Assembly (NCBI RefSeq): GCF_001619985.1 | Contig: NW_017264193.1 | Coordinates: forward strand, 67,726 to 131,725 | DNA from: Xylona heveae TC161 | Taxonomy: Eukaryota > Ascomycota > Xylonomycetes > Xylonales > Xylonaceae | Length of the DNA stretch: 64,000 bases | Direction of reading: 5' to 3' | Part shown: in pieces, positions 1-55,979 of the stretch | How the letters are laid out: every line of letters begins with the position of its first letter | Position numbering within the stretch: position 1 is the first letter of the stretch | The notes under the pieces: model-generated | The model's input: the letters and a program-made list of their open reading frames with translations, nothing else | Told to the model about the DNA's origin: nothing | Database searches by the model: none | Program-made: the position numbers and the translations under genes

Positions 1-2235
1 GCGGCAGGCCGCCCAATGAATGGCTCGATAGCAGACGTTGAATGAGGTAAGAGGGGGGGGGGGAAGTGACCAATTCGAAATCCCATCACTGATTGTTGTC
101 GATTGTCCCATGTTATTGGAGAGCCTAGAAAATTGGGGGAGGGGAGGGACAACCTAATTTGGAAGGCGAATTTGGGACAAGAAAAAGGGTATCGGCAACA
201 ACGCCAACGAAGGCGGCCCATCCCTCGGCCACCCGTCTACGGTTCGGGCCCGCTTGTCATTCGCGTTCTGGACGTGCATTTCCCTGATGGCGGACATGGG
301 GACATAGGGGAAATAGTAGCATGGGCTCCACGCTGAGTCTAGGAATATCGGGCCGCGCTAGCACGCCCGTTTCCTTCTCCCTTACCCACTCTCCTCCTGG
401 TATAACGCCTTCTTCAACCACAGAACCCACCAGCCAGGTTCTGATCAAAAGGGTACAGTCTCGTGCCCTCCATGTAACGTGCAACCAATCATGGATCCTT
501 CGGGTCGTTGCGCACATTGATTGACGGCTGATGACTTGATGGCGCTGTGAGCCATCGCCGGGCTCCTCATCGCTATTGGGGGGGGGGGGACTTTTGCTTG
601 GGGTAGGGTACTCCGTAAGCACGATGCGGATCACACACACAGAGGAAGAAAGCGAACGTGAGAATACTAAAGGATCCAATAACAAGAAGCCTTCATCCAA
701 ATCTAAAGGTCACACACCCATCATCGCGCCCGCATCGACAGTCAGCAGCAGATACGGGCACGGCAACTGCTCCATTGGCTACAAGAGAGGGCGCCACGGT
801 GTTGCTCTGGGAAGAGTCAAGTGTAAGCAGCAACACAATGATTTGCGAAATCAATCAGAAATCATTTGGAGTCAATTTGAGCACGATCCACACAAAAGGG
901 CCGCTTGGGGCAGAGATTAAAAACAAAAAAGAGCAGGGAAGTGCTACCAAGTTATCAGAATAAAATACCAGCAGCAGCCAAGCCATGGGTGAGGGTTAGA
1001 CCGAGGATCACAGAGAACGAGTATCCGTACCTTACAGAGGACTCCCTGACTCCACCAAGGAAAATCGTTGTACACTGTAGCGAGCAGCATGAAGAGCCTC
1101 ACCACAGAGTACTTTGTACATACCTTAGGTACTATCGTTTCGGGCCTTCCCACTAACCCCCCGCGGGTTCGGACAACTAAAGGGCCCTGAGGGTCCCCCA
1201 GGGTCCCTTGACCGTACTGTAGAGGGATTGGGGGTCCCAGTAAGAGCGGTAATAGGTACCTCACTAATGTCCTATTTCGCATAGTCATCCGAGTCTATTG
1301 CCTTTAGTCCACTCATTGATATTTGCTGCCTCAACCAACAACGATTTTCCCCCTCTTCAGGACCGTGTCGCTCAGACCACTGCTCCAGTCGGCCCAGCCC
1401 ATAGAACGCGTTCTGTCGTCCTGTCGTCCTCTTTGGCCATTAAAGCGGTCTCTTTGGGCTTTTGGTCATCAGCCTCGCTGGTTATCTCGATTTGCTCATG
1501 ATGCGCTGGGCGTGACTTAGTGCAACCTCGGGGGCCGGATGTGGCCCATTACAGGCGTTACACCAGCCTGCTGTGTCCTCAAAGATTTCCCTTTCCCCCT
1601 CTCCCCCAAATGGCTAACAACTAGCTTAAGGTCTGTCCGGGACCAGGGGAAGTTTGGTTTATTCGTGCGATCCGGTCCCTTGGTGCGTCTACTCTAGTAA
1701 GGAGTCCCCATTCACGATGGGAGAGAGAGAGAGAGAGAGCCAATTCTTCCCACGGACGTTTTTCTCTCTTGCTCTTTTGCCCCACAGCCCTGAATCAAGC
1801 CTGCCACGGTCTATTTATCACTTCGCGACCCAGATTTTTCCGAAACCTGCCTGTCTCTTATAGTTCCTTTCTCTTCTTTTGCCTCGTTGGTCTTCATTTC
1901 TATATTGTATAATTTATAAATCTTCTTAATCGTCATCTCTGCGGGCCCCTCCCCCCATTGCTTTCAAAGCTATCCCTTTTCGTCTCGCAGACCGTGACAT
2001 CCGCAAGCTGTTGCTTTCCCGGCATCGTCTCTGCATGCTATAGGGCCTTTTGCGAATACGTCAATTCCTAGACATTTGTTTCTGCCACTCGGTCTCGGCC
2101 TGCTTGACCCCGCTTCCATAGATTTGCGAATGCTGTTCCGCTCCTGAGGATACCTGATGGTGGACAGACGCAGGCCGAAGCTCTAACCCGCCTCCGTCAT
2201 TTCACGTCATTCGCTCTTCACATTGATTCATCGCA
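1..2235. other. Long upstream region without a supported gene
   Basis: No reading frame here looks like a protein. The longest ones (for example 257-700 on the minus strand) are low-complexity and have no recognisable domain or splice pattern. The stretch holds two poly-G runs (53-63 and 578-589), a GA microsatellite (1721-1739), an imperfect GC-rich palindrome near 1182-1210 and one TACTCCGTA motif (609-617). The pyrimidine-rich 1.6-2.2 kb part probably contains the promoter and 5' leader of the receptor gene that starts at 2236. Confidence 0.6.
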
Positions 2236-4014
2236 ATGTCTGCTCCTCTGCTTAATATACCGGGTTGTCCGGCCCCGTTCAAGCTGGAGTCAGACTACCC
2301 TGCCACCGGAGGCTGTACGTCTGTCGTCAATAAACATACAAAGGCCTGTTGTCGCTAATGTCGACTAGTTATCCAAGGTCGAGCATGTCAATCACTCCCT
2401 ACCAATATTACATGTTGTCTGCCATGTCCGATGACAGACTGGGTATATCCTGACAGTACGATCTGCCTGTCATCCGTGGTTTGTCAACCCTTGTTAACCG
2501 CCAAATAGACTTTTCACGTCTGAGTTTGATCTCAAACTGGCTCAACGTCGGTGGCCTAATCTTGTGTTTATTCCTTCTGCTTTCATTTGCGGCCTTGCCC
2601 GTTGAGAAGACGCGGCGGCATTACCTCAGCATCTGCTTAATCGGTGCTATTATACTTTTGCAGGCAGGTCTGATCCGATCAACACAATATAATGAGCTTT
2701 TTCTGATGGCGTTGGCAGTTGGGTTTTGTGATACCGCTCGGTGCCAATCCGGGGGAATGCTATGATGCCATCACTCCGCATGACATGCGATCGGATACCA
2801 GTTGTGCTCTCTCTGGCTCATTTCTCCTCGCTGGAGGGTTTGCCACAATGCTCTGGGGTAGGAATGCGTGTTCCATCACTTTTGCACGCCACTTACTTAC
2901 CAATGTTCAGTTTTTATACGGGTACTTTCGATGCATCTCCAGGTTTGCTGGGATATCGTTCCAGGGCATGTCTTCTTCTTTGGATCCCTGTTTGCAGGAT
3001 GGTTTATTCCCGCCATTTTACTCTCCATCGCCTTGTCGCTGACCGGGGTCTCTTATCGTTTTGGGAAAACATGTCATATCAACCATGACAAGAGCAATGG
3101 CGATTTCTGGGGACCTCTTCTTGCCATAGCTGCTGCCGCTTCAATTCTGCAATTCATAACGTATGTTTTGTTCCTTTTTGTGAAGAATCTGACTGATCGG
3201 CGATTAGTTTTGGATACTGTATTCACGTCTATCTCAAGTCTCTAATGGCGGAAGGGACAGGGAGCGGCAACAGCTCTGGACTTCCTTCGCACAATGGTAG
3301 CGTGACTGCAGCCACCGCCCGGGCGGCATATCGAAAAGTTCGGAGAGTCATTGCTCTGCAATGGCGGGGAATTGCACTAATTTTGATTATCATTGTCGAC
3401 TTGGTCTTTTTCTCGGTGATATTCTTGAGCATGGATGCTCAGACCCAAAATAACATGAAACACCCGGAAAAAATGGAAGCCTGGCTAGAATGCCTTGTCG
3501 AGAATGGCGGAGACAAGAACAAATGTCTTGACCTTGCGTCGCACCTAGTGGTCAATGAAGCCACTGTCATGGCCGTGTTGGTATTGCTTTCGGTATGTCT
3601 GGTAGTTATTCGATATGTGAATTTCTCGACACTAATTGGTTTCTCTAGTGGAATGGGTATTGGATTACCTTACTTGTTGGTCGTTGGACTATGGTGACTG
3701 GCTGGTTCGATGTTTTAAGAAAACGATTACGAAAAAAGAGGGAGTTTGTAAGCGTCGATGCACGGCGTCTCCCTCAGGATGCGCGCACCTACGAAATGCT
3801 CTCATCCACACCACGTCCGCATTTAAAGACACCAGATACATCAGTCATCAGCCCGATTGACTCAATACATCATACGGACCAAGGAAATTCGCCGGATTAC
3901 TTTGGCCGGGACGCGAATTACAGTTCTCCGGTCTCGTCGTTCTCTTCTCCGAAAGCGCCGCAGTCAGTTATGCAGCGGGATTGGGACCCACGCTCTACTT
4001 TTGCGCCAAAATAA
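2236..4014 (+). CDS. Seven-transmembrane receptor, fungal GPCR (Frizzled/secretin-like type)
   Basis: Putative plasma-membrane G-protein-coupled receptor. I place seven exons: 2236-2314, 2369-2455, 2509-2663, 2719-2857, 2911-3160, 3208-3592 and 3649-4014. They join in frame to 486 aa. The N-terminal outer segment is Cys-rich (CCLPCPMTDWVYPDN). Hydrophobic helices follow, with family-type segments such as GFVIPLGANPGECYDAITP, SMHLQVCWDIVPG and TGVSYRFGKTCHINH. The tail after the last helix is Ser/Pro-rich and cytoplasmic, as expected for regulated receptors. The third intron (2664-2718) appears to use a GC donor, which is the weakest junction. The closest described group is probably the GprM-like fungal receptors; that placement is from memory of the family. 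The ligand is unknown. The gene stands alone, with long gaps on both sides. Confidence 0.85.
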
Positions 4015-6734
4015 CTCAAGCAAAAGTATGGGTTAAAGACTGCAGCAAAAGCCGTAAATAATTATTCTTTTTGTTTATTACCCCTGATCAGCCCCTTGAA
4101 GGCGAATTATTAGCGAAGGCGAATGTCGGCGTTACAGGCGAGGAATTATATCCGATTTCCTGATTGCATTCTTTCTTCTTTCTTTCTTTTTTTATTCAGT
4201 GAGGAGATACAGGTTACCTTTATTTGGTGTTTAGGAAGGAGTATATTGGAGCGATCTTTTATCAGCGGAGAGTGCACACATCTATTCTGCAGCTCCAGAA
4301 TTTGGACTCTTGATAGTACACGCTCGGCGGCCTTGGAGGATTTAAATGTCCGACTAAAATATATTTGGCATGCGAATGCAAGTGCCTGACGTGTTAGGAT
4401 CAGCGCGTGGTTCAACTATCCAGTCTATGAACCACATATACAATAGAAAGTTGAAGGGCGCATCTAGCGTGCCTCCTTATTTCAGCCAGCGATTACAATA
4501 CTGGGCTAGATACTCTACGATCTAAGAGAGATCTAAGCACCAGTGTACTGTTTGAAATACATTGTCGCAAAAATGATTGAGGGTACATTATATTTATTGG
4601 TGGTTTGAGATTGATGAAGTTACTCTCGGGAAAGCTAGACATAGAATAATTTAGTCGGTTGGGACCGTTGTGGCTTTTGTCCTCGACAGTAATTAGTATT
4701 TAAATACACTACACTCATACCGGGAATCAGTAACCATAAGAAAAAGAGGAAAAGCGCAAAGCGTAAGACGAGCGTGTCCAAAAGTTTGTTTACTACCCCA
4801 GCCCCGGGAGTTTGTATTTTGGTTTACTAACTTCCCTGTTATATTAGTAAGTCAAACTGAACTAAATTAAAATTATATTACTCCGTACTCCACCAGCATG
4901 ATAACGTTCCTACGTAGTAAGTGACTTGAAATGGGAATGGCAATTAGTCCCGATCGTTTCAAATTTTTGGGACTACAGTCATCATCGTCCTGGAATCTGT
5001 TTTCCCCCAACGCCCCAGCCAAGATTGGGCCGCGTCGACAACGGAGAAATTGCCCGTTTCAGGAGGTCACTTTCCGACCCGTCGTCCATTACGTCCTCGG
5101 AACCTTTTCCGGAAGGTCCAAAAAACCACACAAGTTGCTATCCTTTTGCTACCAGTACCACGGAGGTGCTGACACTAAGGGAGGTAAGTCAAAGTAGTAA
5201 TTTTCTAGGGATCAAGCCGATAGAAAAAAGGTGTTTCTTCAGAACGCGGGGCGAGATGAAGAATACCATTGCGACGCTGCAGGTTGGCAGCCGACAGCGT
5301 ATTTCACACGGATGACACTCACCCTTTTTCCGATGTGCTTGAATAGTGCGTTACGTTGCAATTTTGCGAAGAACAGGGGCACCTCGTGGTCGAAGCAGAC
5401 ATTATTCCGTCATGCAGGAAGGGTAACATCCCCCGCATCAAGTTGATCCTTACCTTTGCACTGGGAATCCAATCTGCAATGTGACATCGTGACGTCGATG
5501 GGAGATCGGCAGCCGCTTTGTTGATGAACATATGATGGGATCGACGTGGGATATTTGCAGGCATAATGAAAGTGAATGTATCAACAATCAGGAAGAAATT
5601 GGGAAGGAATTGGGAAGGAATTGGAGAAGGAAACCGGGAAGGTTTACCCGACGGGGTCTAGGGTAAGGCCGACTTCCCGCGGTTTGGCTTGCTTTGGTGG
5701 CTTGGGTTTGTTTCATTGTTCCCAAAAGAACGTCTGTTCCGCATGCATATCAGGGAGGGGTACAGGATCGTAGAGATCGGATGCCTCGCAAGGATTTAAT
5801 GAGGCAACAAAGCCATTGGGGATCGGAAGCCTTCCAGAAGCGGGCAGAGTCTCTTCGGAGACGCCGTGAGCCGATTCCAAGTGACTGTAAGGTGGCAGGC
5901 TTAGAGATGTGTAAGGCATTTATCTGACTTTCGCTCTGATCCAGCGTTTGCACATGATTTTGGCAAAGGTGTGCATGGTATGCGTTTCATTGGATATTTC
6001 AAAGGACAAGCTGACACAATCATGACCAATGCTCATTCACAATGCTGCGGTTGGCTAGACGTTGAGAAAAGCAGTCATGATAGCAAACGAATTTGGTTTT
6101 GAGATCAGGAGATAATAGGAATGTCATTGGTATATCTATCTTAGGCAAGCTTATAAATCTGTTGAAACATTAGCGATGCTGTTTCAATGAATACAAAGAC
6201 AGAAGACTGCGAGGTAATGAGGGCAGCAAATATTCAGAAGTCCAATTAGGTCATGGGTGATCAAAAGATCCCCTCACATAAGAGGTACCAGAAATAAGTA
6301 AAAATGGGGTATCATCACAAAGGCGCTGCGGCAAAAGGTACAAACAAATTGCAGTAATAAAGGGTTTGTAAAGAACATACCTTATACAAAACAAACGAGA
6401 AAGGTCCATTTGACCACAAAGGTCAAATATTTTGTATCTCAGAGCGTCATATGAGTGTCGCAAAAGTTTCGTTGCAAAAGATGAAGCGGTCTCCTTGGGA
6501 TGAAAACATGGCTCCAGCAAAATCCTTGGATTCGCTTAGTGTTAGGCTGACTAAGAGCGCAACAGCAAAATTGCTGCCAACTCTGCCCTAGAGACGCTAG
6601 CGTACTCTCACGTGACCCACATTCTTTCGCCAATTCAAACATCTTCAATTTCTTCCAATTTGCGATAGTTTGAGCACACCGATCAGCGACCTTCGAAACA
6701 CATCAACGGTCTTCAACCTCGACAAACCGCCGCC
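4015..6734. other. 2.7 kb intergenic stretch
   Basis: I see no gene with support. The best open frame is 4926-5315 (+, 129 aa). It has a Ser/Pro-rich middle but no domain, no convincing splice partners and no homologue I recognise. A TACTCCGTA motif sits at 4879-4887. The A+T-rich part between about 4400 and 4900 looks like ordinary spacer DNA. The last few hundred bases should include the promoter of the ribosomal protein gene at 6735. Confidence 0.5.
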
Positions 6735-7441
6735 ATGGGTCGTCTTCACAGCAAAGGAAAGGGCATTTCGTCCAGCGCCATCCCCTACTCGCGCACTCCC
6801 CCCGCGTGGCTCAAGACCACCCCCGAGCAGGTCGTTGACCAGATCTGCAAGTTGGCCAAGAAGGGTGCCACTCCCTCTCAGATCGGTGTCGTCCTCCGTG
6901 ACTCTCACGGAGTCGCCCAGGTCAAGGTCGTCACTGGTAAGTTTGCGCTGCAATTTTGATTGCATATATATAGAAAGCCAGGATCCTAACATTTTTCCAG
7001 GTAACAAGATCCTCCGGATCCTTAAGTCCAACGGTACGATTGCACCACACTGAATATGAATATGAATTGGGAAAATAGAATTTTCCCTTTTTCCAATATC
7101 CCCTTATTATGCCTCTGATTGGTCATGAGACTGACGGAGAGATTTTTCATGTAAACAGGCCTTGCGCCCGAGATCCCTGAGGATCTTTACATGCTTATCA
7201 AGAAGGTATGTGATGAGCCAGAGCCTCTTGTGCGCTCTCGTGGATTATTAACATGGTTTTCTTTCAGGCCGTTGCCGTCCGCAAGCACCTTGAGCGTAAC
7301 CGCAAGGACAAGGACTCCAAGTTCCGTCTTATCTTGATCGAGTCCCGTATCCACCGTCTCTCCAGATACTACAAGTCCGTCGGTGTCCTCCCCCCCACCT
7401 GGAGATACGAGAGCGCCACCGCCAGCACCCTTGTTGCCTAA
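6735..7441 (+). CDS. rps13: 40S ribosomal protein S13 (uS15)
   Basis: Component of the small cytosolic ribosomal subunit, bound to 18S rRNA near the bridges to the large subunit. Four exons (6735-6936, 7001-7033, 7159-7205, 7268-7441) splice to exactly 151 aa, the usual eukaryotic length. The start [20 protein letters not shown] and the end [16 protein letters not shown] are both typical of the family. The conserved uS15 part ([20 protein letters not shown]) lies in the last exon. The second exon is only 33 nt, and introns crowd the 5' half, as is common in ribosomal protein genes. It converges on the Sdc1 gene, about 300 bp downstream. Strong constitutive expression is expected. Confidence 0.97.
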
Positions 7442-7737
7442 ATTAGCGGTGGAGCGTGGATTGTGGCTAGTTGTGGTGTGTTTTAGAAGACGTGCAGAAA
7501 TGGATGTCTCAGCAGATACCATGACGCCTTTTTAAAAAAGAATGAAAAGCCATAATTTTCTCTCGAATTAGGAGTATTCCATTTAATTTGTTTCTTCATG
7601 CATTTTTGTGAAACGCCAATGATATCACACCCATTGTAAACACCCAGTAGCGAAGAGACTCGCGGTTCCGTTCAAAACGCCAAATGCCAGTTTTCCATGC
7701 AAGGTTCATGCGATTCCGCCTTTCCCATCCATGATAG

Positions 7738-8343: not shown

Positions 8344-8550
8344 TGTGGTGACCTGCAACCTTAAGCTCCACGGACTGAATGGATGATTTGTTGCGCCCTT
8401 CAGGAATTGGGATAAGTTAATGGATCACCAGCTCGGCACGTGCCAGCGCGTCAAACTCGCGACGGGGACGAAAGGCATGCCTGTCTCTCGACGTCACAGC
8501 CAACATGCTCGAGTTTGCAGCAATTTCTGCCTCAAAATTTACTTTTCTAG

Positions 8551-11270: not shown

Positions 11271-11627
11271 AGTGCGTCATACACGTTTAGAATGTTCACC
11301 ATGACTGTCTCCAGTCGAATTGTGGCATCTTTCATGCCTAAGAAAAGGGAAGCTTTTTGTACGTTGACCAGCCATTTTATTTCTAATTCTTGTCTGATAT
11401 ACAACGAGCATGGGTATCCAAAGATCTTCGCTAAAATTTTACAACTCAGAACGTCATTCAGGGATAAGACATATATGGTGGATAGAGAGGCCGAGGAGAG
11501 TCGGACGCTCTAATACAAAAGGAAAAGGGAAAGCGCTGAGCAAGCAAAAGAAATCAGAAGGTCTCAACTGGCATCTGGGGGAAGACGGGGTATCTGAGGA
11601 AAGGCAGATCACTAAATTGTGCGACTC

Positions 11628-17674: not shown

Positions 17675-17730
17675 TTTGATATATTTCAATGATAAAGTAC
17701 CCTTTAACGGGATAACCGTAATAGAGAAAA

Positions 17731-19157: not shown

Positions 19158-19158
<1 letters not shown>

Positions 19159-19208: not shown

Positions 19209-19211
<3 letters not shown>

Positions 19212-21331: not shown

Positions 21332-24300
21332 AATAAGCGATGATACGAGAAAACAATTTTACTTGCTCGCGGCAGAGATGGGAAGATCTCAAGAACGAAA
21401 ACACATCAAATGAGAAAGATAAATTGATGGTCGCGCTCGCATATAGCACGAAACGTAAAAGTATGCCGAGGTGCACCTATCACACATATAACGTGAGGCA
21501 CACAGCAATTTGTCGCTCGAAGAAATAATAGCGGCAAACAGCTCCTGGCAGAAAAGGTTGAATCTGAAACCTTTCGCAACGGAAAAAGAAAATAAATAAA
21601 TAAAACAGGAACGGAATGAACCGATTAACCAAGTGTTCTGATCGAAAGATCCAAATACACGAGTAGAGAAACTTTGTGTGAAGTAGAGGTAATTACGATA
21701 CTCTGTGTGGCGGGAGAGGGCGAGTGCCAGTCGGTGGGTTGAGAGTGTTGCGAGCTTTGAAGTACTCCGTAGGCGTAGGCCGAGGGCGAGTGGAGAGGAA
21801 GCAGCAAGGTAGCAGTGAAGACGACCAGCGACCGAGTTCAAATAGAAGGGTCAGCGATCGCCCAGATTAAAACCACGCAAGCAGAAACGTTCGTAATAAT
21901 GCGCGAAACTGCAATGGTTTTTTCCGTAAAGTTGGGAAATTTGTGTCGAGATGGGTGAGTATGGGAAAGTTAGAAATCGATTTGACAGAGACTCGATCGA
22001 TGCCAAGCTCGACGGGGCCAAAGGTGGAGGTCGGATCGATCTGAATCGGACTCTCAGAAGCGATGCGGTTCGATGGGGCAGAAGGGGGGGCAGAAGGGGG
22101 GGCAGCTGGTAGAAGTAGGAAAAGCGGCCGCCTGCTAAAAGGAAAAGAGTTTCCAGCTAAGTTTAGCCGGATGGTTGAAAGCAAAAAAGAACGAAGGCAA
22201 AGAAAGAGAAAAGGTGCGACCGCAATCGACGGCTAAACTTGGTCCGCCCGTGGCATGCGCCACCCGATCAACTGCGCGTTCTCGGTAACTGGAACACGGT
22301 ACAGTACTCGAGGTACCACTGATAGAAGAACGATGAATGCAAATGAGATCTGCTTGCTCCTTGCAATAGCTGAGGCGAGAAATCCGTTGGTTGCAAATCG
22401 TAAACCCTTTAGATAACCAAACCAGATGCACCCAGAATATTTAAAACCGCAAAAGAACGCAGAAATGGTATTTTGCTGATTTGTCGATTTCAGAAAGAGA
22501 AGGGCCAGGCTGTGGCAGATTGGACTTTCCCAGGATGCGGGAGGGGATGAGATGGGATGGGAGGAGGGATTGATAAAGGAAAAGGTAACTGTGTCTGTGG
22601 GAGCACGGGGTCGTCGGGAAGTGGAGGTGGGAAATGAGGAGGAGGAGGGTGGCTGTGAGGCTAACGCACATGAGGGCCCAAGCATGAAGATGTTGTGGAA
22701 AAACCATCAGCATGCGCATTTAGCATGAGCCTTAACATGGCCTGTGTCATTGTCGCAGAGGGCCATCGTGGCCGAGGAGAAGGGGGGAGCACAAAAGTCC
22801 ACCCAGCTTAGCTTGAGAAGACGGCAGATGGAGGGGGGCCACGCACTGCCTGCAGACACACAACAGAAAGGCAGAGGGGACTTCAAGGTACCGATACCAA
22901 AAGGGGCGCTCCAAGGCCGCTCCAATAATATCAAAGAGGGCCAGGGTTCACCGGTTGCGCTCGACATGGCCTGTTTCCTATTCGTTCCCTGGCCGGCCCA
23001 GGGCACAACCGTACAGACTCCGAGACGTAGGTAAGTTGCGTTCAACTTGTGTTATCCCGTCATTCTGGTAAGCCCAACTTTGGAGGCTGCCGGAAAAAAG
23101 GCCGGAGCCGTAGGATAGCCGCAGCACAAGAATGATTGGAGAATTGATTGGAAAGAAAAAAAAAAAGAAAAGATTGAGCCGAGGTAACCGTAGATGGGAC
23201 ATTGTTTGCTCGTAGCTTACCCCCTTTGATGCCTATTTCGGACAATTTTCTTCTTCTATTTCTGAGCCATTCGTCATGATCGTACCGTGAAATAAAGAGT
23301 AAGAACACTTATGGTACGAGTGCCATCACAAAACATTGGACCGTTCTTTTCGATGGCAGAGAAGGAACGGAACCCATGACATAGCGCACGAATCTTTAGT
23401 GGGCGGGGGAAAGGTCTCGAGTTACTGTCAGACCCGCTAAGGGTCCAAGATTGGCGGGAAAGGTTGTTGCTAATTAGTTAGCCCAAGTAAGCTGACCTCC
23501 CCGATTCCTGATTGAGTCCACCCTCTGCCCTTTTTGATCAGAACACAGAAATAGTGGAAGGAAGGTGGGAAAGAGGAAACACAAGGCAGAAAAGAAACAA
23601 TACTCATGTGCCAATGGTCAATTCAATATCCCGTGTCAGGGCCAAAAATTGATATCGACCTTCGTTCATATGCTATGGGCACTTTGGTAAAGCAATTCGG
23701 CTTATGAATCCAACCGCACGTCCTGATATGGCTAGCTTTGCGGGCTGGCCCCAAACAGATTAGCCTCTTAATACTCGCTAATCCGAGCAAAGAAAAGCTC
23801 GCAGTTAGTGAGGAATTAGCGCCAGATTGACGCAACTCGCCAATCTCAGTCGATCCGCGCCGCCGAGACACATCGATCGAAACTTGACCGTTCGAATGGC
23901 GATCTTAACGATGCCCGTTGCCCCCCATAAACTCTCCGTAAGCACATTCATACGTACCTCAATTATTGAATCCAGCTTCGAATTGTATTTGGTGCACCTT
24001 TGATCCATGGTTCACAGACAATCAAATGACCAGCCAATACCGCCCGACTGATCCGTGAATACGTTGCAATCATATCAACCCCGAAGAAATAATCGGATCT
24101 CTCACTCATCATGACGTCGTAGTCATTTTCCAAATCCAATGTGAACAATATTCATCTTGTGAGATTTGCTGCGTCAATGGCCTTAGGGTATGGCTGTAGG
24201 TGCAACGAAATAATGTGGATTCAGTGCCTAGCCACAGTTAATGCTAGCACTTTCAGTAAAAGTAACCACGCAGTACGAGATATGTGTCGCAGTGCTTAGT

Positions 24301-41043: not shown

Positions 41044-42949
41044 CTATCCCCACAGGACGTTGAGTTTCTGCCACTTGGTAGGCTCCGGAATGGGTACTTC
41101 GGGATTGAGCCGTATCTCATCAATGGCGGCTTGGAGGGGGATCTCGGTGAGGGGCACGAGACGGGTCCGTTTATAGATTTTCCAAGCGACAAACGCTGTG
41201 AGCACGAGGGGAATATCCCTAAGTTTACAATGTTAGCTTGTCTTTTTTTTTGTGCTATTGCACAGCTTGGAAAAGATGACATACAGATAAGAGGAAACAA
41301 AAGAAGGAGCGCTGAAATCGCCGCGGGTGAAATTTACAAAGCCTCCAGTCAAGAGGAAGATGACGCATGTTATCAAGGAAAACCACGAGCTATAGACTAT
41401 TTATATTGTTAGTGAGAGTGCAGGATAAAAAAAAAAGGCCGGTGGGGTAGCGAATTGCTGTGAAACTTACTGGACCACCAATGCCTCCAAGGTAGGAGCT
41501 CAGTTGAGATATTTTGAGCCTTGAATGCCTGAAGCAAACGAATGTGGTTGAAGCAGATGACAATCCATGAAATAAGAACACCGGCAGCTGTCAGATCCAG
41601 GAGCCAGAAGAACACCGTCAAGGCACTATTAGAGACGCTCATGTAGGCGAGCAGCATGAACAGCGTCTGCAAAAGCACACACATATAGGGGGTACCCCAG
41701 CTAGTCGTCCGGAGGAAGATCTTTGGTGCCTGCTGTTTGATAGCCAGTCCATATAGCGCTCGTGTGCCGGCCAGCAAGCTCTGATTTCCGGCTGACCAGG
41801 CAGAAGTCAGCACCACCGCATTGACGATTGACGGCAGCGCTTTGATCCCCGCGCGAGATGCTGCAGTAACAAAAGGGCTTTGTGTAGCCGTTCCAGATTC
41901 ATCAGAGAGGTGAGGATCGTCGCTGGGGACAATCATTCCCACAATCAATACAGCAAGAACATAGAAAATTGTAACTCGGGCGAATACCCGCTTGCATGCT
42001 CTTGGGATACTCTGACGAGGATTTTTCGTTTCGGCGGCAGCCATTGCCAGACTCTCAACTCCAGCAAAAGAATACACGGCATTGCTCATGACAGCCCAGA
42101 ATCCAAGGAACTGGCCCCAAGAGCCGCTCGCAATATATTCAACAAAGGGTCCAGGGTGTTTCCAGTAGCGAAAGCCAATCCGGTCCTGGCCGCTAACACC
42201 ACCGAGGTCTATCACAAGTCCAAGAATGATGACACCAATGACAAGAAGAATCTTGAGCAATGCAAAGAAAAACTCAATTTCCGCATAGACCCTGATGAAG
42301 GCGATGGCGACGAAGAAGGTGATGACGATCAAAATCGTAATCCAAATAGCCGCGTCTAAATCCGTCCAATACTGAATCAGAACCACGGCAGCGGATATCT
42401 CGCTGGGAACCGACATATATGCTCCGTACACCACATTCCAACCGACTGCAAAGCCGAGCGCTGGATCGACGAGAAATTCTGCATGGCGGATAAAGGAGCC
42501 AGTCACGGGAAGAAAGGCTGATACTTCTCCCAAGGCGAATTGAACTGAGCAGACGACGAGGCCAACGAGTGCGTATCCTAGCAATGCTCCGAGAGGTCCG
42601 CCGGTTTGAATGGAAGATCCTAGTCCTAGAAACAGTCCAGTTCCCTATGAAGCGCGGAATAGGCGTATTAGTGACATGATACAGGCCGAAATGGTGGACG
42701 TGCAATGTCCAAGTTGATTGTAGTTGGAAATTCCGTATTGGTCCACAGTTGCTCAAGCAAAGGCAAAGGAACCTAGCGCGTAAACGTCTGACTTACAATT
42801 GCTCCTGCCAGTGCAATCATAGACAGATGTCTCTGTTCGATTTGCCGCGACAGATATCTTTCCTCCTCATCGTGAACGACTTGAGATCTTCCAACGATTG
42901 GCTCTTCAGCCTGAATGCTCACGTGGTCATCCTGCTTATTGGTGGCCAT
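41044..42949 (-). CDS. Amino-acid permease (APC/YAT family), copy 2
   Basis: Plasma-membrane amino-acid transporter of the fungal APC family. Exons 42797-42949, 41471-42644, 41285-41396 and 41044-41218 give 537 aa. The N-terminal tail (about 45 residues) is hydrophilic. The first helix holds the APC signature MIALAGAIGTGLFLGLGSSI across the 152-nt first intron. The canonical ESLAMAAAETKNPRQSIPRA loop is present, as are GTPYMCVLLQTLFMLLAYM and the C-terminal segment RTRLVPLTEIPLQAAIDEIR. About twelve membrane helices are apparent. It differs clearly from the permease at 11628, so the two are not a recent duplication. The substrate is not predictable. A TACTCCGTA motif lies 386 bp upstream of the start. 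Confidence 0.93.
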
Positions 42950-44234
42950 TGCTGTCGTAATCAGAGGCCGTCAACAGCAGCAGGGCTCCAGTAGGGCTCC
43001 AGCAGGTACCAGATAATGGAGGCAATGAGCGACAATCGACACCTATGTAGCTCTCAGACGGGAACAAAGCTGAGAGCTCGGGAGCCAGAAGGAATGCATG
43101 TTTTCTAGGAAGATTTAGGGCCATCTTTCTCCACCAGCAAGAAATCAGAGGGCACGCCAGCGAGGGCACGAGCACTGGTTGGGATTTGGCTCAAGTTCGC
43201 CATGGGATCCCCACATCGCGTGCTGGAGGAACGGACCGAAAAGGGCTGCACTATCAGTTTCAATTACAGTTACACTTACAGTTATGCAGTCGCTAATCTC
43301 CCTCGCTTGGTCTGTGCTGCCTCTGACCACCGAGTACTCCGTACAGATGGTTATAATACAATCTTAAGCTACAAGGAGCTGAACAGTTCTGAGTCTATAA
43401 GTTTTCTTTCTTCGATATCAGACGGACATCTTCGTATATATTGCACTTTCAAACAGCTCACCTGAATAAATCCAGGGCCAAATGTCTCACGAGCCTGCCT
43501 GGTAGATGATAGGAGGGGACTCAATTCAACTGGCCGTATCGGAGTGTACAGTACCTTGCTATTTCCGGACTCTTTATAGTCTTAAAGGCTTCAACCCCGC
43601 AAAAGATGAACCCTGCATCAACGTTCTCTTTATAACTTCCTAGAAATACAAAATCTGAATTTTCAAATGACATTATTTTGAACAATTATTGCGCCAGCGG
43701 CTTGGCCTGTCCCTGTCAAAAATAAATGAATTTTTTCCGTCTGTGTCTTGGCTGGAGCTTGGCATTAGTGATTGGAGACCCGAGTGGGGGAAGGCTGAAC
43801 GGACTATCTCCACTGGTGCAGGGTCTACCTGCTCCTTGTGGCATAGTCTCCTTCTCTCACAATACGATGTCGGAACTATGCCGACTCCCAAATTACCTAC
43901 CTTGTCGTAGTCTAGGCAGTAGCCCGCCCTTACAGAGCAAAGATGTCAACGTCGTCGGTGATATCCTCAATGGCTTAGACCAAAGTTAAAAAAGAACACT
44001 GATCAAGATCGCAGCCTTCAAGGGATATTTCTTAATTTCTTCAAGATGAACATTTCTGCAACAATTGCATTTTATTTTATTTTTTTATTTAAGTGAATAA
44101 TAAAACCAACAAATAAAAAAAAAGGAATTTTGAGTAAAATGTTAAAATCAAAGTTTTCTTGGACGTATATAGTCAAGTATACTCGCCATGCTCACAGATT
44201 GTTGCTACAGCATGAGGCAAAGTTACACATCTGC
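42950..44234. other. Intergenic region upstream of permease copy 2
   Basis: Contains the permease promoter with a TACTCCGTA motif at 43335-43343, and A/T-rich DNA (44030-44130) just past the 3' end of the Ams1 gene. Short frames near 43690-43990 lack support. Confidence 0.55.
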
Positions 44235-47792: not shown

Positions 47793-48740
47793 GATTGTTC
47801 AATATTCTTTAGTTTGCTCGTCAAGCCGTAGAGATTGAAAGAGGACGAAAGCTCGAAGTCAAATAATAATGTTCTATATGAGCTTCAAAAGGATCTCAAG
47901 CTTACAATGCCGAGCGGGGCAAGTGGAGAGAGCATTGGAGCTTCGGCTACACAGCTCTATCCCTTACAAGCACATCGAAGAAGCTGCGTGCGCAAGGGAC
48001 CAGCTAGGATACGAGGAGCTCCTGGAGGGTCATGACCTCAGTAGGTACCACAGGATTGCGGGGAAGTTGCTTATCAGAAGAGGTACTCATGATTATTGGT
48101 CCGTCCGCAACTATCGTAAGTTAGTTCGGCTGATCCGAAATGCGTCGGTTGGAAAGGGAACCAACCCCTTGAACTGGGACCAGGGCACTCCCGACTCCTC
48201 TCGGCGGGAACTTTTGCCGAGCACTTTAACCATCTCTCATTCAATGTAGTTATACCTCCTAGGCGTAATACCCGATCTTTCACCACTGTACAGAGGTCGA
48301 TGCTGGCTTTCTCTCCTTTTTGAGATCTTGTCAAGTTTCTAATTAGAAGGATATTGTCCAAGATACCTCTCTGAATCATAATGCAACTCTACCTAGAATA
48401 TACAGAGGAAGGATGGTTCCAACAGACTTTCTTTTCTACGAAGCAAATAGACAAGCTATTTCCACATTTATAGTAGGTAGGTAACATAGTGACGCACCAT
48501 GTAGTGAAAGTTATTCTGCTCCATTTCCAGGGGAACAATATTAATACTCCCAAGTGTAGTATTCTCATGTCACCTGGTTGCTGACTTGTTGATATGGAGC
48601 TGCTCGCTATCAGCCTCCGCGCTAGTGGGAACTAGTACAGTGTGATGTTTATCGGGCTACGGAGTATAGTGGTATCGTCGCCATACAAATTCGACATGGC
48701 GGGAGCCGCTGGCCCATAACCATCCTCAGCCCACGCCGCC
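47793..48740. other. Divergent intergenic region between Ams1 and the Lcl3-like gene
   Basis: Holds both promoters. A TACGGAGTA motif lies at 48658-48666, 75 bp before the Lcl3 start. An open frame at 47869-48249 (126 aa) has no domain and is not called. Confidence 0.55.
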
Positions 48741-49608
48741 ATGAAATGGCCACCATGGTCTTCCAAATCCCAAGACGATCGCGATGATAGTGAGCGTTCT
48801 GTTTCTTGGACCAACTCCCTCAATGTTACAGATTGGTCGCACTACACCGATCCGCGGACAATCGTCCCTACGATTCTGCTAACGGGGACGACTCTCTTCT
48901 TTGTCCGTATCTATCGATCGTATCTGCGTCGCATTCCAGCAGCCTCAAGCATTCATCCAGATTTCTTTCGTCGACGAAGTCTATTTGGGCAGGTCACAAG
49001 TGTCGGCGATGGCGATAATTTCCGTCTCTTCCATACACCTGGAGGACGGCTTGCGGGATGGGGTTGGATGCCCGGTCGGCGAGTGCCCGTGAAGAAGGAA
49101 GAATTGAAAGGAAAGACGGTAATTAAAGATCCACTGAAAGACTATTCTGTACAAAGATTGATATTGGCTAACGCAATTATACTTGAAGATCCACATTCGG
49201 CTGGCCGGTGTGGACGCCCCCGAGCTTTCGCATTTTGGCAAGCCAGCTCAGCCTTTTTCCAAGCAAGCTTTAGACTGGCTCACATCGTACATATCGAACC
49301 GCCGCGTGCGAGCCTATATCTACAAGCGCGACCAATATGACCGTGTTGTTTCTACAGTTTATGTACGACGATGGCTCTTACGCAGAGATGTCGGCTTGGA
49401 GATGCTAAAGAGAGGGCTTGCTACTGTATATGAGGCAAAAAGTGGAGCAGAGTTTGGGAAGCTCGAAGCTAAATATCGCAACGCAGAATGGTGGGCGAAG
49501 AAAAGGAGGAAGGGCATGTGGTCGGCCAAAAAGGCAGATTTTGAGAGCCCACGAGAATTCAAGACCAGAATGTCCATGCTGGAGGATGTAAAAGATCCTA
49601 AGTCTTGA
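48741..49608 (+). CDS. lcl3: Lcl3-type membrane nuclease (staphylococcal nuclease fold)
   Basis: Probable endonuclease with a TNase/SNase domain; yeast Lcl3 is mitochondrial-membrane associated. Exons 48741-49118 and 49189-49608 give 265 aa. A single hydrophobic helix ([20 protein letters not shown]) sits near residues 40-59, after a short hydrophilic N terminus. The SNase fold starts with [20 protein letters not shown]. Across the intron come the active-site segment [20 protein letters not shown] and the basic loop [28 protein letters not shown] and [12 protein letters not shown] close the domain. The intron acceptor was chosen because it gives the family sequence KTIHIRLAG. Catalytic Arg and Glu/Asp positions appear kept. 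Confidence 0.93.
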
Positions 49609-50070
49609 CATCCACTCCTTTTGCTTGTTCCGTCAAGGCTTCTCGGTAGTAATTGAGTTATGCATCGTTTTACAATTGGGCGAACCAGCGATGCAATGTT
49701 GATGCGAGCATGATATATATACATTTACATATGTGACGGCAAACAAGACAAATGATTCTACACTTATAATGGATCCACTACAAAGAATTGTCAAATATTA
49801 TCTCACTTGTACATATACCAAATTAAGCAATTTCAATGTTGTTTGACTTTTAGGTAAAGGCTCAACTGGAAATCTATGAGGGTACCGGGGTCGCACTGCT
49901 AGCTCCGGGAGCCACGCAACCCCAGATTTCAATTAGTTAACGACCCTGTTGATTCTTAACCTCGGCTCGTGGGCAGGGTGCAGTACAGCACAACTGTCAC
50001 ACCCATACGAACAAGCACCTCCGCGAAAGATGGGTTATGTTTTGTTTATCTATAGAGGGGCAGCTTCACC

Positions 50071-51405
50071 ATGGCCGGAGAAGTACGACAGCCCATTAAC
50101 GTGGAATCTTTGAACGCATATCTGAGCAACCATGTACCGGAAATAGCTATACCCGTTAAAATCAAACAGGTCAGCCATCTTCTGTGCCTCGTACCGCAGG
50201 GAACAGAGTTATCACTGACACCCGTCACAGTTTGGATTCGGCCAGTCGAATCCAACCTACCAGCTCACGGACCGTACTGGAATGAGATACGTGCTACGGA
50301 AAAAGCCTCCCGGGAAACTTCTCTCAAGAACCGCACATCGGGTGGACCGCGAGTACAGAATCATAGATGCACTCCAGGGAACAGACGTGCCTGTCCCGCG
50401 GGCGTACTGTCTTTGCGAAGATGACAGTGTTATTGGAACACCTTTCTACGTTATGAGTTTTCTGGATGGTCGAATCTTTGAAGACCCGACGTTTCCTGGG
50501 GTCTCGCCTGCCGAGAGATACGAAATGTATTTTCTGTTGATTTTTTTTTTTTTTTTGGTTTCTTGAATAAGAAATATCTTTCCCATGTGAGGATTATTTT
50601 GGCTAACATAAGTCTTTCTGGCAGGTGGCATGATGCCATACGCACGCTCGCAAAACTACATCGTATCGACCCCGCCTCCATAGGCCTGGAGAGCTACGGG
50701 AAAGCGTCAGGGTTTTATAATCGGCAACTGCAGACTTTCAACACAATATCCAATTCCCAGGCTCAAACTGAGGATATTGACACCAAAAAACCTGTCGGCA
50801 AGATTCCGCATTTTGATGATATGCAAGCATTCTTTCGAGATCCGAAAATGCAGCCTAGAGATCGCGGGACGCTGATACATGGAGACTACAAAATTGATAA
50901 TTTGGTATATCATAAAACAAAACCAATAGTAATTGGTATTCTGGAGTGAGTATTGCATGTCCTTCGCGTTTTCACGTTCATAATTTATCTGACTTTTCTT
51001 TTTCTGTATAGCTGGGAGATGTCAACGATAGGACATCCGCTTTCAGATCTTGCCAATCTTTCAACTCCGTACGTCCTGGCAAACGTACCAGAAGGCAGCG
51101 GTATTCGGGATCACCCTGAATTTCGTCCTGGGGTCACTCCGGGAATTCCATATCGAGGCCAATGTATTCAGTGGTATCGGGAAGTGGCTGGATGGGATCC
51201 ATCTATAGAGATGCCATGGGGAGATGCCTTTGGCATTTTCAGAGGGTCAATTATCATGCAAGGAATTGCTGCAAGGTCTGCACGAAGGCAGGCCAGTAGC
51301 GCCAAAGCGCACGAATACATTGTGCAGATGGCACCGTTTGGAGAATTTGCCTGGAGTTTGATCGAACGTGTCCGCGAAGGATTCCAATCAAAGGCAAATC
51401 TATGA
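50071..51405 (+). CDS. APH-fold phosphotransferase (ACAD10/11 N-terminal-like)
   Basis: Kinase-like protein of the aminoglycoside-phosphotransferase fold, of the type fused to acyl-CoA dehydrogenases in ACAD10/11; here it stands alone. Exons 50071-50169, 50231-50526, 50625-50945 and 51012-51405 give 369 aa. The nucleotide-binding start [14 protein letters not shown] is followed by the Lys-bearing strand [13 protein letters not shown]. The catalytic Brenner motif [14 protein letters not shown] and the metal-binding [18 protein letters not shown] lie on either side of the last intron. The natural substrate is unknown; these enzymes are thought to act on small hydroxylated molecules, not antibiotics. 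Intron 2 contains a 16-nt T run (50541-50556). Confidence 0.93.
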
Positions 51406-51747
51406 AAAGAATCATGAATGATCATATTACTCGAGCGCTCTGTTATATGACTCGTGAATGTGCTATCTATAAAGAGAGCCAAGGAAAAATAGACAAATGA
51501 AAATGTCATCAGTGCGTATCAAACTATTGGGTTTCATCAAAACATAACTGTCGTTACTCGTGCTTCGAGCCCGCTAAGACGAGCAAGTTAAACCAAATTG
51601 CCATGACGTAGACCATCGTCTGGGGACTAATGGTACGACGAGAGGCATTCGTAAAAAAAGGAAATGAGCATCGCATGAATGAGGGGCACCAGAACGGACG
51701 AAACATCTCTGATTCGGAGAGACAAGAAAAATCCAGCGGTCTGGGGG

Positions 51748-53241
51748 TTATTTGGCGTGATCAACAATCTCATCGTAGAGACCATTGGGGATTCGGTCGA
51801 GGATACTAATAGCAAGCCACTTTATCTTGGAAGCTTGTAGTGGAGGGAATGACCTTAAAACTTTCATGGGGCTGCAAATCCGTAAGCAGACGCAGAGAGT
51901 GACAGGACATGGGCAAAACAAACCTTGGGCTCTCGAGGATCGCATCTCGGGTCATGATTAATTGTGCCACAATACATAGGACATTCATATGTGCTCCGGA
52001 GGCGAACAGAAAGTCCCAGAGGTGAAGTACTTCTGGAAGAGGTGGAGTGCAGGCGCAGAGTGTTAGTACAGATGGAAAGGCGTACAACTTGGCCTGCATG
52101 CCTTTTGACAGCAGATATGCTGATAGAGCTGGATCCACAATGGCCAGCACCCTATCAACAAGGGAAAGGCCTCGATGAACACCCTCCATAGCACCTCTCA
52201 CATACCCAGGACACTCTTCTGTTAGAAAGCGATGGAAGGCCACGAAAGCCTCCACTTCACTGCGCGCAGCGTAGAGGAACGGAGCCGCAAGCACGTTCAT
52301 CCCTTGCACATAAGTACCTGGCTCAGCACTTCCTGCTTCAGAGCCCTCGGTCGTGGTTGCGGTTGGCGGGCCGCGAGCATGCTTAGCTGAAGGTATAAAG
52401 TTGAACACCGGGTGGAGCTCAGGACTGGCTTCAGCCAGGGTTGTTATTGCAGATTGATTCTTGGTGCTAAGGTTGCGTTCCTCCTTGGCATCATGTAACC
52501 TCCAAGCCACGGCATTCAATAATCGGATCAAGCTCGCTTCGCTAACTCTTCTTCGGAAAAGAGGATCAGTCGCCAGTGTACGAAAGGTATCATTGCGGAT
52601 TTTCGAATATGCCGGGGAGGGACCGCGGTGAATCAAACCAAGGTAGTTATCGGTAGGTAGAGAAGGCGCGCTGAGAAAAATTAACCACAAGTAGATCCGG
52701 GAGGTAGACTGGACTTTATTAGTTCGTGCTTATCCATTGCATTGCTGGATGAGTATACCATTCCGTCACTGTCACTTGGAACGCCGTGAGCGAGAACCAA
52801 TGTCTTTATTTCTTGAATACCCAGTGGTATCTCATTTTTAGCCGGGACATGTCTTAACATTATATCTAAGCTTTTTGGGGTGGTGGTTGGTGTCGGTAAT
52901 GAACTCTGCCCCGCGCCACGTCGAATTGGAAGTGCGACGGTGGGTGGACCTTTCGTAGAGGCATCGCTATTCGATCTGGCTCGGCCAAACGGTCGCGACG
53001 AGCTAATTGCAGACAATTGATTGTTGAGGGAATCTTTATGGAAAGCAGATACGGAGCGCTGTTGTCGAAGGCGTGACTGTGCAGAAATCGGGACGTTCAG
53101 AGCGGCCGATTGTGACAAGGCTTGGGTAGAGTGCAACTTGCGAAGACCGCGCGGCTTTGGCGAGACAGGTGTGGGATTCCAGGGGGCAGTTGGAGGAGGT
53201 ATATTGGGTATCGACGGATTAGACGATGTGGACGACATCAC
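51748..53241 (-). CDS. bub2: Mitotic checkpoint GAP Bub2/Cdc16 (TBC domain), with a frame break
   Basis: GTPase-activating subunit that, with Bfa1/Byr4, holds back mitotic exit or septation by acting on Tem1/Spg1 at spindle poles. The N-terminal ~120 residues are disordered and Ser/Pro-rich. The TBC domain has the arginine-finger motif SKIRNDTFRTLATDP and the glutamine motif GTYVQGMNVLAAPF. The C terminus is spliced at 51872-51923 and ends in LDRIPNGLYDEIVDHAK. Upstream, the frame covering 52681-53241 stops (SLPPGSTCG), and the TBC frame, open from about 52690, is a different one. I could not find an intron that joins them. This is either a sequence or assembly indel, an intron I missed, or a real frameshift; most of the protein is otherwise well preserved. 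Confidence 0.82.
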
Positions 53242-55979
53242 ATCGGCGAGCGGAATGGAGAGATGTCTTTTAAAGATACGGTTCTCAGGTATGACCCCTA
53301 GGTGTTAGATCAGGGGTCGAAATGGAAATATGATCACAATGCTTGAAAGGACCACATGAGCTGAGAGAACTGAATGGAAAGAAAGATTTCGTAGTTAAAG
53401 GAGCGAACGATATGAGTAGGTTAGAATTCGTGATTGACCACAACGAGCGTGAGAAAGGTCGGTGCTGATGGTGATGTCGTCGCGGTTTGGAGTTGAGCCT
53501 CTTTCCCCTATAGCCAACCAGCCACGGCGCGTGCTTCCCCAGCCACGCATACTCCGTAGCTAAAAACAACCCCCAAATTTCGGTTGTTTGGCGTGCACTA
53601 TGGTACAAGGTAACTGTCTTAAGAACCTTTAAGCATGGCGCTGGTAACACCTTGATAACATTATGACTCGAACTGTATTTGAAAAAATATTTAGGTAATT
53701 GTCAGTATGTAGATGACAGGAGTATGGAATCGTCTCCGAAATCTCTCCATTCTCCTGGCGGTGTTGCAAAATGGTAACAAGGGAACAAGGCTAATCACGT
53801 GGTTCTCTAGCTGTGACTTGGATTTCGCCCCAATGATTGAGTTAGCAGCAATTCGCTCCATCGAAACTTCATAAAACATTCTAGAATATTAGGTCCTGCA
53901 CCGTTTGCTAATGAAGAGCGGGAGAGTCACAAGGTAAAAACTCGGTGAGCTCCTGTTCGAGGCTCCACCATGTGCAATGTGGGGTAGATTTTCAGCTATA
54001 ACTGCGACCCAGATCATTAGCTCAAAACACACCCCTAGATGATCCCAGTCATCATCGATTTGGTTTAATTGAGACATGAGGCCTCCCATACTACTATAAA
54101 CTCATTACGGAACAGCAGGTACGATAATCCATAGACCAATTTAACATACTTAAAACCGTAGAACGTGGGGACTAGAATCCTAACAAAAGTGGGGATCAGT
54201 TGAGAGCGATTTATCAGTCTATTTGATAAGAACTTTGTAGATGGATTTAATCCGGTAGTACTTGATATGAGATGAGTTTATTTGGTTGTTATACTATATT
54301 TGTATGTTGGTATATCCCGCCTCATATGATCCGTTAGTTGGTCTCATGCGGTCTCAGTGATCACTGCCTGTCAAGATGCTAGCAAAGGCTGTACTCAATG
54401 CGAGACACTCTTAATATCAATGTCCTCATGATGATCCCCACATAAAAATCTACACATTGCCAGGCGGTGGGTGTTTACAAACTACTCCTTGTCGTGTCGC
54501 CCGAAACGCGCTAAGGGCGGCTCGCGCATAGCGGGGAATCGTACCGTCTTACGGAGTACTCTACCGTGATGAAGGATGATATCAGGACGGTGGGGATAGA
54601 TAATTTGGGCGAAAGGGCCAGAACTGAGTTTGACGGAGGTTGAGGTACTGACGGCGATGTGCTCAGTCTTTGCCTTTTGACAACCCACTCGAGAAAAGTC
54701 AGTCTTCGGTAGGCCGAACATGATTGGCCGGGAAGATTTTCTCAGGCTAAATTCGGGGTAGACCAGGACGGCTATAACTAACTAATGCTCCGTTCAAATC
54801 TTTTCATAGATTAGATTTGCCTTCTCCCGCTTCGGGAGGGACTGGGGCATAACTATACTAATCACCTACGACACTTAGAGCTTCCACCTCGCACATGCCA
54901 AACATGTGCTATGCTCCATACTACGCTGTCATCCATTGAAACGACATCGACCTGCTACTGCGGTCCAGGAACATTGCGCAATTCTTTTCTTCTCATTCTC
55001 TCTCTCTGTCTTTCGCCTCCGACTCGGCCTTGGCTTTACGTACCAATGTGATTCATGCTTCAATAAACGTGACAAATTACATTGGTCTTTATCTACACTT
55101 TTGGAATCATCATGTCGCCTGGGACATGATGTGACGGCTTCCGAGGACCCAGATGGGATATTCTCATTTGATGCAAAGCTCCGAACTCTGGGACTTACGT
55201 GACAGAAAATCGATTAGACTTTGGCTTTGGTTCAGTTAAAGGCTGTCGTTGCGTATGGCGTGCTCTCGGCTAAGCGAAAAAAGGTACAGATCGCGTCGAG
55301 TGAGCCCCAGAACTAGAATTTCTCTCCTCCAATGATGGTCCGTCTGAGTGATGCCATCGACACCCATACGCTCATCACTGCCCGTTGTTCACCAAGTTGA
55401 TGCTGAGACAAGCAAAAAGCCCTGGAAAGCCACCGCCCGCCCATCATGTCGTCTTATTGCTCATGTGTTCATCCACTGCTGTGCCAATTCTCTTCTCTTG
55501 TGCTTTCCTTTTCATTGTTTTTTTCCCAGCTCCCGCCATAAGAGGCTTGCAGTCTGGACCCCCTTTCGGTCCGTTCATTTGATACTATTCGTCCGATGTT
55601 TGTGCATTGCTCATCTTGATCGCCCTCATCTTTCCGGGGTCATACGCATCGTCTCATCATTGTGCAGAGAAGAGTTTGAAAAAAGCTGTGGGAGTCTTAT
55701 CTGCGGTGCGGCGTCGCCTAGATCGCATCTGAAGGAAAATTGATTCCTTTCACGATCCTTGAGATCTTAGCGTCCTGCTTGGCTTACCTCCCTAAGTCAC
55801 TTTTGTTTTATTATATTAAAGCATCCCACCTTCTCCTCGTGTTCGGATAGTCATCTTGCATTCGGGTTCTGCTTTGCTTACGGCCCTTACCATCCCGTTT
55901 GGCCGCCTTCTGCAGGGACTAAGCTCCTCAGACCAAAGCATCCCGGCCAGCATCGACTGCGCCTGTCATTTCCATAGAC
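53242..55979. other. 2.7 kb intergenic region
   Basis: Lies between the divergent Bub2 and sulfate permease genes. It has two copies of the 9-mer motif, at 53550-53558 and 54550-54558; the second extends to a near-palindrome. A pyrimidine-rich stretch at about 55460-55960 is the likely leader of the sulfate permease. No gene is supported. Confidence 0.55.

What the first reader, a model, noticed from the sequence alone, without database searches (positions are those of the whole stretch)
609..54558. Recurrent non-coding 9-mer TACTCCGTA / TACGGAGTA
Exact copies occur at 609-617, 4879-4887, 21763-21771, 43335-43343, 48658-48666 (reverse), 53550-53558 and 54550-54558 (reverse). All lie outside coding exons. 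Chance gives about 0.5 copies in 64 kb counting both strands. Several are half of a longer palindrome TACGGAGTACTCCGTA; 54550 and 43335 keep 12 or more of its 16 bases. Four lie 75-432 bp upstream of start codons (21331, 42949, 48741 and 53241). It could be a binding site for an unknown regulator, a remnant of a short palindromic mobile element, or a replication/architecture signal.
Basis: partly seen in the sequence, partly recalled or inferred. Interest (0 to 1): 0.7.

Follow-up and report, generated by a model that had tools for sequence, protein, structure and literature searches.

The report
Genome-wide fungal SomA-type promoter motif
The short word TACTCCGTA, seen seven times in this stretch of a fungal genome, matches a DNA motif already reported as the binding site of the fungal regulator SomA; it is real and far too frequent to be chance, but it is not a new kind of element.

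Summary
Genome-wide there are 1000 copies in 24.28 Mb, against 187 for the reversed word and 62-88 from Markov models. It is the most over-represented non-simple 9-mer in C1:1-260000. None of the first 30 sites lies in a confident coding segment; the other 970 were not tested.

The 16-bp palindrome is not the unit: one perfect copy exists genome-wide. The better unit is the 11-mer GTACTCCGTAC: 131 copies against 10 for the control. One is in the window, at 43334-43344, upstream of an amino-acid permease gene.

That 11-mer is letter for letter the published ChIP-seq/EMSA motif of SomA in Aspergillus fumigatus. TACGGAGTA also appears among UvCGBP1 ChIP-seq motifs in Ustilaginoidea and in the target site of the Starship Tardis, whose authors left its function open. 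This genome encodes SomA-like and PtaB-like proteins.

Best reading: a promoter binding site of the SomA-PtaB regulatory system. The direct DNA reader and conservation at orthologous promoters remain untested; the few named SomA targets checked gave no support.

The parts
609..617 (+). TACTCCGTA, outside predicted coding segments
4879..4887 (+). TACTCCGTA, outside predicted coding segments; followed by CTCC, so it begins a partial second unit
21763..21771 (+). TACTCCGTA, 605 bp upstream of the coding segment 19977-21158 (minus strand, no Pfam match); 13 of 16 of the palindrome
43334..43344 (+). full 11-mer GTACTCCGTAC (the published SomA motif), 371 bp upstream of the weak segment 42779-42964 (score 16.3, no Pfam match) that precedes an amino-acid permease segment, 41496-42632 (minus strand)
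48658..48666 (-). TACTCCGTA between a GH38 alpha-mannosidase gene (minus strand) and a plus-strand gene: weak segment from 48771 (score 14.8, no Pfam match), then a staphylococcal-nuclease domain segment from 49168
53550..53558 (+). TACTCCGTA, 249 bp upstream of the segment 52693-53301 (score 17.7, no Pfam match) that precedes a RabGAP-TBC segment (minus strand)
54550..54558 (-). TACTCCGTA in the same intergenic region, between the RabGAP-TBC gene (minus strand) and a plus-strand segment from 55923 that precedes a sulfate permease segment

Best explanation
TACTCCGTA is the core of a sequence-specific promoter binding site, best written GTACTCCGTAC, used by the SomA-PtaB (Flo8 / LIM-binding type) regulatory system of filamentous ascomycetes. 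A DNA-reading protein (SomA itself as published, or a zinc-cluster partner that carries it) occupies these sites in intergenic DNA, sometimes several close together, and SomA-PtaB then recruits co-activators to switch on cell-wall, adhesion and developmental genes. Shown here: the over-representation, the sharp sequence, the non-coding placement of 30 sampled sites, the clustering on C1, and that the genome encodes SomA-like and PtaB-like proteins. Taken from print: SomA occupancy and EMSA on this motif in A. fumigatus, and the SomA-PtaB-SAGA connection. Inferred: that the same proteins use it in this fungus and at these seven sites.
For: 9-mer: 1000 copies against 187 control and 87.5 Markov order 4. 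11-mer: 131 against 10 control and 4.7 Markov order 4. Rank 1 of the non-simple 9-mers counted 8 or more times in C1:1-260000. The 27 one-mismatch neighbours together: 4832-1000 = 3832 against about 2815 expected, 1.4-fold, so the signal is sharp. Location: 0 of 15 sites of C1:1-260000 in segments scoring 20 or more, which cover 43.5%, and 0 of the next 15 sites on C1 in any segment. Clustering: 16 of 99 gaps between the first 100 sites on C1 are 1200 bp or less, 3.9 expected. PMC7667024: MEME motif GTACTCCGTAC in 119 of 476 common SomA peaks, EMSA lost on mutation (passages); PMC10900910: EMSA on the meaB promoter (passages). PMC9581972: PtaB forms a complex with SomA and co-precipitates the SAGA subunit Spt20 (passages). 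PtaB-like LIM_bind gene at G000:C11:219151, E 4.6e-60.
Against: SomA's LisH motif is described as one for dimerisation, and in yeast SomA bound FLO11 promoter regions holding the Flo8 consensus TTTGC, a different word (PMC4631450, passages), so a partner may read the DNA here. Named SomA targets gave no support: no exact 9-mer between C1:646014 and 688555, where a chitin synthase lies (674757-676457); no 11-mer within about 90 kb of the chitin synthase pair on C4 (9-mers there were not listed). The nearest 11-mer to the KilA-N gene at C4:743618 is 7 kb away. The Pfam-identified genes near the window's sites are ordinary transport, glycosidase, nuclease and trafficking genes, not obvious biofilm genes. 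Counted raw, words with up to one mismatch are fewer than for the reversed control (4832 against 5385); the excess of neighbours appears only against the Markov model. One-mismatch neighbours are themselves low in coding (9 of 39 against 41.1% coverage), so part of the non-coding bias is composition. No binding data exist for this fungus in anything I saw.
Confidence: 0.65

Rival explanations
1. The site belongs first to another, widely expressed DNA-binding protein (for example a C6 zinc-cluster factor) that acts like a general regulatory factor, opening promoters; SomA, UvCGBP1 and others appear at it secondarily.
For: The same word is reported for unrelated proteins: SomA, the C2H2 factor UvCGBP1 in Ustilaginoidea as one of six MEME motifs, and as overlapping predicted A. 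nidulans C6 zinc-cluster motifs, JASPAR UN0291.2 (as cited). It holds a CGG triplet. The Flo8 consensus given for yeast is TTTGC, not this word. About 1000 sharp copies per genome is the scale of general regulatory factor sites (recalled comparison).
Against: EMSA with recombinant SomA and loss on mutation are reported. No nucleosome or binding data here. The Neurospora factor ADV-1 was considered and has another motif, GCGCTTA.
Confidence: 0.2
2. Target-site footprints of Starship giant transposons of the Tardis type, which use TACGGAGTAG.
For: Tardis target site TACGGAGTAG; CTACGGAGTA above the 99.99th percentile of k-mers in Af293 (PMC12153272, passages). One DUF3435 captain-like gene in this genome, G000:C5:491235-492618, in three matched pieces.
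Against: 1000 copies are hard to explain as footprints where one captain-like gene was found, none of it in the window. Flanks of 30 sites share no sequence. [quoted passage not shown] My inference: the element targets the word and did not make it.
Confidence: 0.03
3. A short palindromic or tandem repeat (MITE remnant or heptamer microsatellite).
For: Eight tandem copies TACTCCGTACTCCGTA and one palindrome genome-wide, none in the reversed controls.
Against: These hold at most 18 of the 1000 cores. No shared flanks among 30 sites.
Confidence: 0.03
4. A replication-origin or chromosome-architecture signal.
For: Outside confident coding segments in 30 of 30 sampled sites; orientation balanced 493:507.
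Against: Clustering of several sites within about 1 kb and the published promoter occupancy point to transcription. Not tested directly.
Confidence: 0.06

Closest known systems
SomA-binding motif GTACTCCGTAC of Aspergillus fumigatus (PMC7667024; passages seen)
   Same: Identical 11 letters, 131 copies against 10 for the control here; 30 of 30 sampled cores outside confident coding segments; SomA-like and PtaB-like genes present.
   Different: No binding data in this fungus; the chitin synthase and KilA-N genes checked here lack a nearby exact site as far as the lists reach.
Target site of the Starship Tardis, TACGGAGTAG, and over-represented CTACGGAGTA in A. fumigatus Af293 (PMC12153272; passages seen)
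   Same: Same 9-bp core; same kind of genome-wide over-representation.
   Different: Here no Starship is tied to the sites. That paper's text does not contain the word SomA.
TACGGAGTA, one of six MEME motifs in UvCGBP1 ChIP-seq, Ustilaginoidea virens (PMC8344781; passages seen)
   Same: Identical 9-mer.
   Different: UvCGBP1's EMSA-tested site is AGGGG; no test of TACGGAGTA in the passages seen.
JASPAR UN0291.2, A. nidulans C6 zinc-cluster factor (known to me only as cited in PMC12153272)
   Same: Said to overlap CTACGGAGTA.
   Different: Matrix not seen here; protein not identified.

Membership tests
SomA-type motif | Sequence GTACTCCGTAC or its core | tested here: met
   One exact 11-mer and six further cores in the window; 131 11-mers and 1000 cores genome-wide
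SomA-type motif | Lies in non-coding, promoter-type DNA | tested here: met
   0 of 30 sites in segments scoring 20 or more; 4 of 30 in weaker ones. The sample is the first 30 sites of contig C1, out of 1000; non-coding was tested, promoter position only by eye for the window's sites
SomA-type motif | Genome encodes SomA and PtaB | tested here: met
   (query recalled from memory); orthology not confirmed by a tree
SomA-type motif | Site upstream of orthologues of named SomA targets | tested here: inconclusive
   Chitin synthase on C1 has no exact core nearby; C4 pair and KilA-N gene have no near 11-mer, and 9-mer lists there are absent or partial; glucan synthase on C16 not covered by the lists
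SomA-type motif | Bound by SomA in the cell | not testable with these tools
   Needs ChIP-seq
Starship Tardis insertion | Element with a DUF3435 captain bounded by the direct repeat | tested here: not met
   No captain in the window; one captain-like gene elsewhere (C5), its borders not examined
Short palindromic mobile element | Conserved unit longer than the core | tested here: not met

The most novel reading that the evidence does not exclude
TACTCCGTA is a shared landing site across filamentous ascomycetes: an ancient general promoter element read by one still unnamed DNA-binding protein (probably a C6 zinc-cluster factor), onto which SomA-PtaB dock and which the captain of the Tardis Starship has adopted as its integration target. 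In that case the unexplained Tardis target is simply the SomA promoter element, and giant transposons land in regulated promoters by design.
Probability: 0.2. Interest if true: 0.65.

Novelty: new member of a known kind. Interest (0 to 1): 0.38.

Why it matters
It ties a strong anonymous word in a fungal genome to a published regulator, and it joins reports that do not mention each other: the Starship paper contains no 'SomA', the UvCGBP1 paper no 'SomA' or 'Starship', and the SomA paper no 'Starship' or 'UvCGBP1'. The Starship paper left its motif's function open, so a stated open question (what is the Tardis motif?) becomes directly testable. The 131 11-mers and 1000 cores counted here would be a first candidate regulon for this fungus once all are located.

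Tried and rejected
The 9-mer also occurs in primers, probes or listed sequences of other papers, which I take as incidental: SntB primer, AtrR abcG1 probe primer, A. oryzae primer, FvCon7 primer, a SINE. The first literature search held 965 papers, of which 40 were listed, and held 51, of which 30 were listed; the rest were not seen. The reversed word is a lenient control: Markov models expect 2.6 to 4.4 times more of it than of the real word, so true enrichment is nearer 11-fold or more than 5-fold.

Limits: no annotated relatives are held, so conservation at orthologous promoters could not be tested. The coding model was trained on 64 long frames of the same 260 kb and is not a gene finder. 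On its weak threshold (14) 4 of 15 sites fell in segments (P 0.055); on the earlier sliding score 3 of 15 sites exceeded 5 and a fourth read 5.0, where 44% of bases exceed 5, and the next 15 sites all stayed below 5. The reversed word had 2 places in that stretch, both scoring as coding. The coverage figure used for the second 15 sites is that of the first 260 kb. Several sites lie in clusters and so are not independent. Of the nine Chitin_synth_2 rows I used the five strong ones (three genes) and left out four weak ones (C4:779285, two on C15, C2:2242972). Place lists stop at 100: the 9-mer list is whole only to C1:2980529, the 11-mer list only to C8:891311; one search listed a further, incomplete set of exact sites on C1-C4.
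Full report
What was claimed. A 9-mer, TACTCCGTA, recurs seven times in non-coding DNA of the window, perhaps as half of a 16-bp palindrome, and might be a regulator's site, a mobile remnant or an architecture signal.

Check. All seven copies are exact and in place; shuffles give 0.24. The window lies at G000:C1:67726-131725 of a 24.28-Mb, 17-contig assembly. The gene content (Rrp14/SURF6, GH38, RabGAP, amino-acid and sulfate permeases) and the SomA-like and glucan synthase genes fit a filamentous ascomycete; this is inference and the species was not determined. Genome-wide the word occurs 1000 times (493 and 507 by strand) against 187 for the word read backwards. That control is lenient, since Markov models of orders 1-4, trained on C1:1-260000, expect 62-88 copies of the word and 224-272 of its reverse. 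In C1:1-260000 it is the most over-represented non-simple 9-mer of those counted 8 or more times, 15 copies against 0.92 expected. Seven in 64 kb is above the genome average of 2.6.

What the unit is. The palindrome TACGGAGTACTCCGTA exists once in the genome and the tandem TACTCCGTACTCCGTA at 8 places. The 11-mer GTACTCCGTAC exists 131 times against 10 for its reversed control and 2.6-5.0 expected by Markov order. Words with up to one mismatch number 4832, fewer than the 5385 of the reversed control; but against the order-4 model the 27 neighbours of the 9-mer reach 3832 (4832 minus 1000) for about 2815 expected. Either way most of the signal sits in the exact word. Among the first 30 sites on C1 no flanking position within 12 bases exceeds 0.26 bits, and 500-bp flanks share no sequence except where fetched pieces overlap, plus one imperfect 68-bp inverted self-match inside the cluster at C1:413 kb.

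Where it lies. With a hexamer coding model trained on 64 long frames, segments scoring 20 or more cover 43.5% of C1:1-260000 and hold 0 of 15 sites (P 0.0002); at the weak threshold of 14 they cover 50.5% and hold 4 of 15 (P 0.055). For the next 15 sites on C1, 0 of 15 lie in any segment. As a warning, one-mismatch words are also under-represented in coding segments (9 of 39 in segments of 25 or more, which cover 41.1%), so part of the bias is composition. Sites cluster: 16 of 99 gaps among the first 100 sites are at most 1200 bp, 3.9 expected; four sites lie within 1.8 kb at C1:413161-414960.

In the window, 43334-43344 is a full 11-mer 371 bp from a weak segment that precedes an amino-acid permease; 53550 is 249 bp from a segment that precedes a RabGAP-TBC domain; 48658 is about 100 bp from a weak segment that precedes a staphylococcal-nuclease domain; 21763 is 605 bp from a segment with no Pfam match. 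That the nearest segments are first exons of those genes is inference.

What is known. SomA ChIP-seq in A. fumigatus gave GTACTCCGTAC as the top MEME motif, in 119 of 476 common peaks, with EMSA lost on mutation (PMC7667024, passages); meaB was added later (PMC10900910, passages), and a review draws it into the biofilm network (PMC9581972, passages). UvCGBP1 ChIP-seq in Ustilaginoidea lists TACGGAGTA among six motifs (PMC8344781, passages). The Starship Tardis has target site TACGGAGTAG, and its authors found CTACGGAGTA above the 99.99th percentile in Af293, noted predicted zinc-cluster motifs, and called the motif of interest for future research (PMC12153272, passages). That text does not contain the word SomA; the SomA paper has neither 'Starship' nor 'UvCGBP1', and the UvCGBP1 paper neither 'SomA' nor 'Starship'. 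Searches of the held library for 'CGGAGTA' with 'Starship' and 'fung' and for 'Starship', 'target site', 'Tardis' and 'fung' found only that one Starship paper, so within that library and those searches I saw no statement of the SomA-Tardis link.

Who reads the DNA. SomA's LisH motif is described as a dimerisation and tetramerisation motif, and in yeast SomA bound FLO11 promoter regions that hold the Flo8 consensus TTTGC (PMC4631450, passages). That differs from GTACTCCGTAC, so a DNA-binding partner is a serious possibility despite the published EMSA.

Machinery. A SomA-like LUFS region is encoded at G000:C3:1050802-1051158 (query recalled from memory, so identity figures are approximate) and a LIM_bind (PtaB-like) gene at G000:C11:219151. 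Three LisH genes found by Pfam look like other proteins by eye.

Results against. Named SomA targets in A. fumigatus include chitin and glucan synthases, stuA and medA. Here the chitin synthase at C1:674757 has no exact core between 646014 and 688555; the pair at C4:1175035 and 1185639 has no 11-mer within about 90 kb (9-mers there were not listed); the KilA-N gene at C4:743618 has its nearest 11-mer 7 kb away; the glucan synthase on C16 lies beyond the lists; medA was not sought. Which of these genes are true orthologues of the Aspergillus targets was not established. Regulon conservation is therefore not shown.

Verdict. A real, sharp, genome-wide word, non-coding in the sample tested, that is identical to a published transcription-factor motif. 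Most likely it works as a promoter binding site of the SomA-PtaB system; whether SomA or a zinc-cluster partner reads the DNA is open.

Noticed in passing
G000:C5:491235-492618 (outside the window): One DUF3435 (Starship captain-like tyrosine recombinase) gene in three matched pieces, two with an in-frame stop that may reflect introns; the only one that the search found in the genome.
   Followed up: no
G000:C4:1175035-1187260 (outside the window): Two chitin synthase genes lie head to head, their matched domains about 9 kb apart (minus and plus strand), an arrangement I recall for class V and VI genes.
   Followed up: no
L018-L021 (G000:C1:413161-414960): Four copies of the 9-mer within 1.8 kb, one of them an 11-mer, downstream of a VPS53-like segment; a dense cluster with an imperfect 68-bp inverted repeat near it.
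   Followed up: partly
C1:1-260000 (loci L031-L050 and window): 5725 bases read N in the joined stretch; none in the window itself. Whether gaps or withheld was not examined.
   Followed up: no
window 578-589: A run of 12 G just upstream of the first 9-mer.
   Followed up: no
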